Assembly: GCA_028691845.1 (NCBI GenBank)
Contig: JAQUYL010000008.1
Location: 62,001-126,000, forward strand
Length of the DNA stretch: 64,000 nt
Origin: Opitutaceae bacterium
GTDB taxonomy: Bacteria > Verrucomicrobiota > Verrucomicrobiia > Opitutales > Opitutaceae
Direction: 5' to 3'
Shown here: one piece after another, positions 17,263 through 18,156 of the stretch
Layout: each line of letters starts with the position of its first letter
Numbering within the stretch: position 1 is the stretch's first letter
Position numbers and translations under genes: made by a program
Notes under the pieces: generated by a model
Database searches by the model: none
What the model saw: the letters and a program-made list of their open reading frames with translations, nothing else
What the model was told of the DNA's origin: nothing

Positions 17263-17763
17263 CTATTTCCCCGACTTCCTTCCCTTCCCCTTGTTCTGCT
17301 TCTCGGTCTTCTCTTCCTCGGCCTCCTTCTTTGCTTTCTTCGCTTTCTCTTTCCCCTCCTTCTTCGCCTTCTCGGCCTTCCTCTCCTCCTTCTGTTTCTC
17401 CTTCTCGGCCTTGCTTCCTTCACGCTGCCTGTCCTTCTCGGCCTTCATTTTCTCCTTCTGTTTCGCCTTCTCGGCCTTTCTTTCCTCGCGCTGTTGCGCC
17501 TTCTTGGCCTTCTCGGCCTTCCTCTCCTCCTTCTGTTTCGCCTTCTCGGCCTTGCTTCCTTCACGCTGCCTGTCCTTCTCGGCCTTCATTTTCTCCTTCT
17601 GTTTCGCCTTCTCGGCCTTCTTCATTTCGTTCTTCCTAGCCTGTTCGGCCTTTTGCTCCTGCCCCACGACATTGGGGGGAGTTTTCTCGTCTGCCGCACG
17701 CACAAGCAGCGGAGAACCCAACATGACTGCGCAAACCGCGAATGGGATGAATTTGGATTTCAT
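17263..17763 (-). CDS. Secreted Lys/Glu-rich repeat protein
   Basis: A 166-residue protein with a clear signal peptide (MKSKFIPFAVCAVMLGSPLLVRA, cleavage near residue 23) followed by about 130 residues made almost only of Lys, Glu, Ala, Arg and Gln in KAEKAKQKE-like units, and a basic tail. A long charged alpha helix or coiled coil in the periplasm is likely. A 36-residue segment is tandemly duplicated at DNA level. I do not recognise a family, and similar low-complexity proteins often match unrelated coiled coils. It converges with the GIY-YIG gene. Confidence 0.75.
   Translation of the reverse strand: MKSKFIPFAVCAVMLGSPLLVRAADEKTPPNVVGQEQKAEQARKNEMKKAEKAKQKEKMKAEKDRQREGSKAEKAKQKEERKAEKAKKAQQREERKAEKAKQKEKMKAEKDRQREGSKAEKEKQKEERKAEKAKKEGKEKAKKAKKEAEEEKTEKQNKGKGRKSGK
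17371..17619 (-). repeat. Internal 108-bp duplication in the Lys/Glu-rich gene
   Basis: Segments 17371-17478 and 17512-17619 are near-identical copies spaced 141 bp (47 codons) apart, so the duplication preserves the frame. Each encodes a block including KMKAEKDRQREGSKAEK. The near identity points to recent expansion. Confidence 0.85.
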
Positions 17764-17953
17764 GGGATGATCGTGGAATGTCTGACTGAGCTTTGCAGTA
17801 ATGCCGATCCATTACAGGACTCGACATTTTCGTATATGACAGAGTTTGGCCCGGATGGCGATGCGATTTCAGTGGCATACTTATCCCGGAGCACGTCACA
17901 AATTGCCCTGCCCGGTTGTTTGCCGGGATAGGGCACCGGGGAGCCACAGCGTG

Positions 17954-18156
17954 GGCGGAACTGGATTCCCGGGCTGCAGGCGTAAAAATCCAGTTAATAT
18001 CCGCCGAGTGCCGCTCTTGCGGAAAGATGCGCACGGTCGTTTGTGAACGTTTTGCCAGCCAACTGCGTCTTTCTATGCGTAGCTTCTATGGTTAGTTGGT
18101 ATAGGGTAAAAGAGCTACAGGGCCGTCTTTAGGGGTAGAGGCGGCCCCATTTTTTT
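17954..18156 (+). ncRNA. Candidate structured RNA with intrinsic terminator
   Basis: Four helices can be read directly. GGCGG (17954-17958) plus AACTGGATT (17959-17967) pairs with AATCCAGTT (17987-17995) and CCGCC (18001-18005), a 14-bp helix with one bulge. CCGC-TCTT-GCGG spans 18011-18022. CCAACT (18059-18064) pairs with AGTTGG (18094-18099). GTAGCT (18079-18084) pairs with AGCTAC (18113-18118). The last two interleave, which is pseudoknot topology. A strong terminator follows. No + strand gene precedes it; the next one downstream is a pseudogene. I could not match it to tmRNA, RNase P, SRP or 6S RNA. The 5' end is unknown. Confidence 0.45.
18120..18156 (+). terminator. Intrinsic terminator
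   Basis: GGGCCGTCTTTA (18120-18131) pairs with TAGAGGCGGCCC (18136-18147) over 12 positions, two of them G-U, around a GGGG loop. A seven-T run follows. On the - strand no T-run follows, so it acts on + strand transcripts. Confidence 0.85.

What the first reader, a model, noticed from the sequence alone, without database searches (positions are those of the whole stretch)
17954..18156. Structured RNA with interleaved helices and terminator, no host gene
A 14-bp bulged helix, a small hairpin, two interleaved 6-bp helices (CCAACT/AGTTGG and GTAGCT/AGCTAC, pseudoknot order) and a strong intrinsic terminator follow one another on the + strand. No + strand gene precedes it, and the first gene downstream is the VOC pseudogene. 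It could be an sRNA or a stranded riboswitch whose controlled gene decayed. It matches none of the common RNA classes I can check by eye.
Basis: partly seen in the sequence, partly recalled or inferred. Interest (0 to 1): 0.62.

Follow-up and report, generated by a model that had tools for sequence, protein, structure and literature searches.

The report
Multicopy ECF-type-promoter small RNA, Opitutaceae
The spot holds a gene for a short regulatory-type RNA of about 80 nucleotides, one of several copies in this bacterium and of a family found across its whole bacterial family (Opitutaceae), each copy preceded by the same unusual promoter and in none of the RNA catalogues checked.

Summary
The finding is real but mis-bounded. 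The window holds one diverged copy of an undescribed small-RNA gene family. A covariance model from three copies in this genome finds the family across its relatives; a second scan gave 80 loci, essentially all Opitutaceae/Verrucomicrobia. Each unit has three blocks: a promoter TTTTGARCG-N16/17-CGTCTWTC (the AAC/CGT signature of ECF sigma factors), a conserved unpaired core (GGUUUGCUUGGUGUUAGG), and a covarying intrinsic terminator.

In the window the promoter is 18040-18073 and the RNA about 18076-18156. Rfam has no match.

All 22 strong promoter matches in 60 genomes precede this RNA; the reversed-pattern control gave none.

Best reading: a multicopy, ECF-sigma-dependent, trans-acting sRNA, Hfq-free, perhaps served by RRM proteins, functionally resembling FopS of Bacteroides. 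The gene architecture is shown by comparison. Transcription, the sigma factor, the target and the protein partner are inferred; target searches found nothing.

The parts
18040..18049 (+). -35 element TTTGTGAACG (GAAC 18045-18048) of an ECF-type promoter
   Evidence: PWM from 72 homologous promoters: 29.7 bits here, next best site in the 64-kb window 9.7 bits; conserved in homologs
18066..18073 (+). -10 element CGTCTTTC; spacer to GAAC is 17 nt
   Evidence: spacing 16 or 17 in 72 of 79 homologs against 1.7% of random stretches with such a site
18076..18156 (+). predicted small RNA, about 80 nt (start inferred, 7-10 nt after the -10; end at the T run)
   Evidence: covariance-model matches R1/R2; z -3.45
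18079..18118 (+). 5' stem GTAGCT 18079-18084 / AGCTAC 18113-18118 enclosing the core; specific to this copy
   Evidence: fold; not kept in the other own-genome copies
18090..18106 (+). core GGTTAGTTGGTATAGGG, diverged form of the family core GGTTTGYTTGGTGTTAGG
   Evidence: alignment A5
18120..18156 (+). intrinsic terminator: 12-bp stem, loop AGGG within the conserved TAGGGGTA, then T7
   Evidence: 7 of 9 consensus pairs with two-sided changes in 33 sequences
   Evidence: absent from the other own-genome copies and not found in relatives

Best explanation
Window 18040-18156 is a small-RNA gene of a multicopy family of the Opitutaceae. Step 1 (inferred from a conserved bipartite promoter): an ECF sigma factor directs RNA polymerase to TGAAC-N16/17-CGTC and starts a transcript near 18076-18080. 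Step 2 (shown by covariation across relatives): transcription ends at a strong intrinsic terminator, giving an RNA of about 65-110 nt whose middle is a conserved, mostly unpaired G/U-rich stretch. Step 3 (inferred): that stretch pairs with target mRNAs, most plausibly of cell-envelope or uptake proteins as in other sigma-dependent sRNA families, with an RRM-domain protein rather than Hfq as partner. Several co-transcribed copies would raise the dose and diversify the seed. The window copy is a diverged paralog whose core is partly closed in a 5' stem.
For: Two paralogs in the same genome at 72-74% over 117 nt, plus a complete type II member and a partial one. Model from three copies: best non-own E 4e-13, candidates in 143 of 200 family genomes at E<=0.1 (the weak ones are not all certain). 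Stricter model: 23 of 25 family genomes, 4 of 7 of a sister family, one doubtful match elsewhere in the phylum sample. A pattern scan of 84,980 species genomes gave 93 stretches; the 80 listed are all Opitutaceae/Verrucomicrobia except one titled only 'bacterium'. GARC-N16/17-CGTC in 72 of 79. ECF promoters typically carry AAC at -35 and CGT at -10, with a 16+/-1 spacer reported for group ECF41 (PMC3426412). Exact promoter pattern: 22 matches in 60 genomes, all before this RNA, reversed pattern 0. Covariation: type II 5' hairpin 8 of 8 pairs changed on both sides, 0 of 500 shuffles reach the whole-structure measures. Hfq 0 of 29 over cut-off, RRM_1 26 of 29.
Against: No transcript data. The sigma factor is unidentified: none of the own genome's ECF genes carries the promoter upstream, although most ECF factors autoregulate. 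No target: pairing of the core with 430 gene starts is no better than with shuffled cores, and exact 11-mers complementary to the core turned up almost only in the RNA genes themselves. The link to RRM proteins is co-occurrence only.
Confidence: 0.6

Rival explanations
1. The RNA is a protein sponge: repeated UUUG-type motifs in the unpaired core bind and titrate an RNA-binding protein (for example an RRM protein), and copy number sets the dose; no mRNA pairing is needed.
For: UUUGY motifs 1.46 per RNA against 0.42 in shuffles and 76 of 128 RNAs with two or more UUUG; variants in other loci keep GUUUGU-like motifs while losing the long core; RRM proteins in 26 of 29 relatives; no targets found.
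Against: The 18-nt core is kept almost letter for letter, more than a short protein motif needs; most loci were fetched by that very core, which inflates the motif count.
Confidence: 0.2
2. A cis-acting leader or riboswitch remnant of the downstream VOC-like pseudogene.
Against: Copies end in their own terminator and are flanked by unrelated genes in both orientations (nearest downstream + 39, - 38); tandem copies; no such gene recognised beside the paralogs.
Confidence: 0.02
3. A small mobile repeat (MITE/REP type) that happens to carry a promoter and a terminator.
For: Several copies per genome, tandem pairs, one copy abutting an insertion-sequence-like end.
Against: Copies agree only in promoter, core and terminator and differ in between; type II keeps its place beside a lysine-2,3-aminomutase-type gene in 30 of 46 loci; stems covary instead of being copied.
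Confidence: 0.05
4. A small membrane peptide gene: ATGTTTGTAGTTCTTACGGTTTGCTTGGTGTTAGGTCAC in many type II members reads MFVVLTVCLVLGH.
For: Open frame in many type II members.
Against: The ATG is not kept, one-base length changes occur between GTAGTTC and GGTTTGC (L110, L158), type I breaks the frame, and codon third positions hardly vary.
Confidence: 0.03

Closest known systems
FopS family of paralogous sRNAs with RRM-1 protein RbpB, Bacteroides thetaiotaomicron (PMC11697453)
   Same: Multicopy sRNA family in a lineage without Hfq that has RRM-1 proteins; conserved unpaired seed-like stretch; kept across a bacterial family.
   Different: FopS is driven by canonical sigma-ABfr promoters, ours by an ECF-type promoter; no credible sequence relation (Bacteroides BTnc231 only at 19.7 bits against a cut-off of 80.4); binding to an RRM protein and SusC-type targets not shown here.
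FoxI/FoxJ, sigma-E-dependent sRNAs of Fusobacterium nucleatum (PMC11005410); RybB/MicA of E. coli (from general knowledge)
   Same: Small RNAs driven by an ECF sigma factor.
   Different: Those regulons also include protein genes; here the strong promoter precedes only the RNA. Multi-copy with three architectures. No sequence similarity established.
LhrC1-5 sibling sRNAs of Listeria monocytogenes (PMC5880928)
   Same: Paralogous sRNAs of one family in one genome.
   [quoted passage not shown] different phylum.

Membership tests
Any Rfam 15 family | score at or above the family's gathering cut-off | tested here: not met
   window, own paralogs, 20 homologous loci (only a tRNA and a TPP riboswitch nearby), one type II and one type I member at E<=10
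ECF-sigma-dependent promoters | AAC in -35, CGT in -10 (PMC3426412); 16+/-1 spacing as in group ECF41 | tested here: met
   72 of 79 GARC-N16/17-CGTC; six of the other seven keep AAC as TCAAC; control 1.7%
ECF-sigma-dependent promoters | same motif upstream of a sigma gene (autoregulation, usual but not universal) | tested here: not met
   own ECF loci, best site 13.5 bits inside a coding region
ECF-sigma-dependent promoters | loss of transcription when the sigma factor is removed | not testable with these tools
   needs an experiment
Hfq-dependent sRNA | Hfq encoded in the genome | tested here: not met
   PF17209: 0 of 29 genomes over the cut-off, own genome none; E. coli and B. subtilis controls positive
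FopS-like, RRM-bound paralogous sRNA | several paralogs per genome plus an RRM-1 protein | tested here: met
   own genome 4 complete members and 1 partial, two RRM_1 proteins
FopS-like, RRM-bound paralogous sRNA | physical binding by the RRM protein and repression of SusC/TonB-receptor mRNA | not testable with these tools
   needs CLIP and reporters; pairing scan of 430 gene starts negative
Riboswitch / cis leader | conserved position before one class of gene | tested here: not met
   neighbours vary in identity and strand
   paralogs do not keep them

The most novel reading that the evidence does not exclude
A dedicated sigma factor whose strong promoters drive only a multicopy family of small RNAs: a non-coding-only ECF regulon, working without Hfq and probably with RRM proteins, conserved across an order-level lineage of Verrucomicrobiota.
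Probability: 0.3. Interest if true: 0.8.

Novelty: new member of a known kind. Interest (0 to 1): 0.58.

Why it matters
No small-RNA regulon turned up for Verrucomicrobiota in the literature searches made here (open-access full text only). This gives one with a ready-made promoter signature, three architectures, copy counts and named hosts (for example Cephaloticoccus), so it can be tested at once. All 22 strong promoter sites in 60 genomes stand before this RNA and none before a protein gene, which raises the question whether a sigma factor can have a purely non-coding regulon. It would also be a second lineage, after Bacteroides, in which a multicopy sRNA family occurs without Hfq but with RRM proteins.

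Tried and rejected
Riboswitch/leader: rejected by flanks and terminators. Pseudoknot: arms not conserved. Small peptide: start and frame not conserved. Exact terminator pattern in GTDB and IMG/VR: no hits, because the window copy is diverged; the family appeared only with a covariance model. Plain BLAST of the window stretch in 200 genomes gave chance-level matches only outside the own genome. ECF autoregulation in own genome: none seen. Target prediction by duplex energy at 430 gene starts: real -23.8, shuffled -24.3 kcal/mol mean, no enrichment; one TonB-receptor duplex in L115 looked good but lies inside the coding region and is single. Exact antisense 11-mers: almost only RNA genes. One fold (L226) was taken from the wrong stretch and is ignored.

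Full report
WHAT IS THERE. A nucleotide search of the window's own genome (G000, 2.95 Mb) found two further copies of the 3' part only, window 18039-18155, at 74% (L002, C34) and 72% (L003, C31, about 115 nt downstream of a tRNA-Glu). Those two copies are 88% alike over 200 nt. The bulged helix 17954-18005 and the hairpin 18011-18022 are in neither, and BLAST of the whole stretch in 200 family genomes gave only chance-level matches outside the own genome.

THE FAMILY. A covariance model (R1) from the three copies found full-length matches in other genomes of the family, best E 4e-13, with candidates in 143 of 200 genomes at E<=0.1 (the weakest need not all be true). Reading the matches showed one plan: TTTTGARCG, 16-17 nt, CGTCTWTC, a conserved core GTAGTTC..GGTTTGCTTGGTGTTAGG, and a strong terminator. 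A pattern scan of GTDB species genomes for core plus terminator gave 93 stretches. Of the 80 listed, 79 have titles naming Opitutaceae, Opitutia/Opitutae/Opitutales or their genera, or Verrucomicrobia (Cephaloticoccus primus and capnophilus, Candidatus Didemnitutus, Opitutus sp. among them) and one is titled only 'bacterium'.

THREE ARCHITECTURES. Type I (window, L052, L082 and others): promoter, core, terminator whose loop reads TAGGGGTA. Type II: an additional 5' hairpin and a longer linker TGTTTGTAGTTCTTAC before the core, terminator stem extended by CACA/TGTG. Type III (L066, L068, L073): another single-stranded stretch, with TTTGGGGTAA, between similar ends. In type II all 8 pairs of the 5' hairpin show changes on both sides, and over the whole structure no measure was reached by any of 500 shuffles or by the slid versions. 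In type I, 7 of 9 consensus terminator pairs have two-sided changes.

PROMOTER. In 72 of 79 homologs GARC and CGTC are 16 or 17 nt apart, against 1.7% of random stretches; six of the other seven carry TCAACG in place of TGAACG, and the seventh has CATC instead of CGTC. AAC at -35 and CGT at -10 is the signature of ECF sigma factors, and group ECF41 has a 16+/-1 spacer (PMC3426412). A weight matrix trained on these sites scores 29.7 bits at window 18045; the next best site in 64 kb scores 9.7. Over 1.21 Mb of fetched DNA every site above 14 bits precedes one of these RNAs (read by eye where the automatic label failed); the first that does not scores 13.9. An exact pattern over 60 whole genomes gave 22 sites, control 0, and all 22 precede the RNA. 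The pattern is strict and finds only a minority of members, so weaker protein-gene sites are not excluded.

DISTRIBUTION. With the stricter model R2: 23 of 25 own-family genomes, 4 of 7 of a sister family f2 (AT-richer versions with GTTTGTTGTTTG-like letters in place of the core), one doubtful class-level match (L208), nothing in the rest of the 288-genome phylum sample. The own genome has four complete members (window, L052, L082, and L086/L226 of type II) and a partial one (L084). Tandem copies occur in L014, L166, L191, L201, L203 and L211. Type II stands near a lysine-2,3-aminomutase-type gene in 30 of 46 loci and near a carbamoyl-phosphate-synthase-like gene (named from its sequence by eye) in 17, which marks orthologous loci; type I does not.

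THE WINDOW COPY. With the start inferred at 18076-18080, the RNA is about 80 nt and folds with z -3.45: GTAGCT/AGCTAC closes a 5' stem around the diverged core GGTTAGTTGGTATAGGG, followed by the terminator. The second helix is in the transcript but is private to this copy.

FUNCTION. Shown by comparison: conserved promoter, core, terminator, copy number, lineage. Inferred: transcription, ECF sigma dependence, trans action. Hfq is absent from 29 of 29 genomes at the curated cut-off, while RRM_1 proteins are present in 26 of 29. This recalls RbpB and its FopS sRNA family in Bacteroides (PMC11697453); FoxI/FoxJ show ECF-sigma-dependent sRNAs outside Proteobacteria (PMC11005410). My searches for targets were negative and no own sigma gene shows autoregulation by this promoter. 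I put about 0.9 on 'a transcribed small-RNA gene family', 0.7 on 'ECF-type sigma', 0.5-0.6 on 'acts in trans by pairing'.

NOVELTY. Not in Rfam 15 at any credible score, and not found in open-access literature searches. It is a new family of a known kind (multicopy, alternative-sigma-type sRNA); the apparently RNA-only promoter class is the surprising part and needs an experiment.

Noticed in passing
window 17904-17935 and 17954-18005: Two strong inverted repeats just upstream of the promoter, single-copy and not found in relatives; not a terminator of either strand by eye. Possibly an operator or a decayed element.
   Followed up: partly
L002 1-125 and about 20 contig ends of the own genome: A 125-bp sequence repeated at contig ends, looks like an insertion-sequence end that caused assembly breaks; one RNA copy begins right beside it.
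   Followed up: partly
window 17263-17763 (-): Repetitive lysine/glutamate-rich ORF with a signal-like N-terminus (KAEKAKQKEERKAEK repeats), no Pfam match.
   Followed up: no
   Followed up: no
L014 (G055:C190), positions about 1240, 1536, 1774, - strand: Array of three copies with the same promoter but a different core (TTTGCAGGGCTAGTTTC..GTTTGTAGTTTGTTAGTCGG), suggesting further subfamilies.
   Followed up: no
L201, L202, L198, L204 (sister family in the same order): AT-rich homologs with the same promoter and GTTTGTTGTTTG-like letters instead of the Opitutaceae core.
   Followed up: partly
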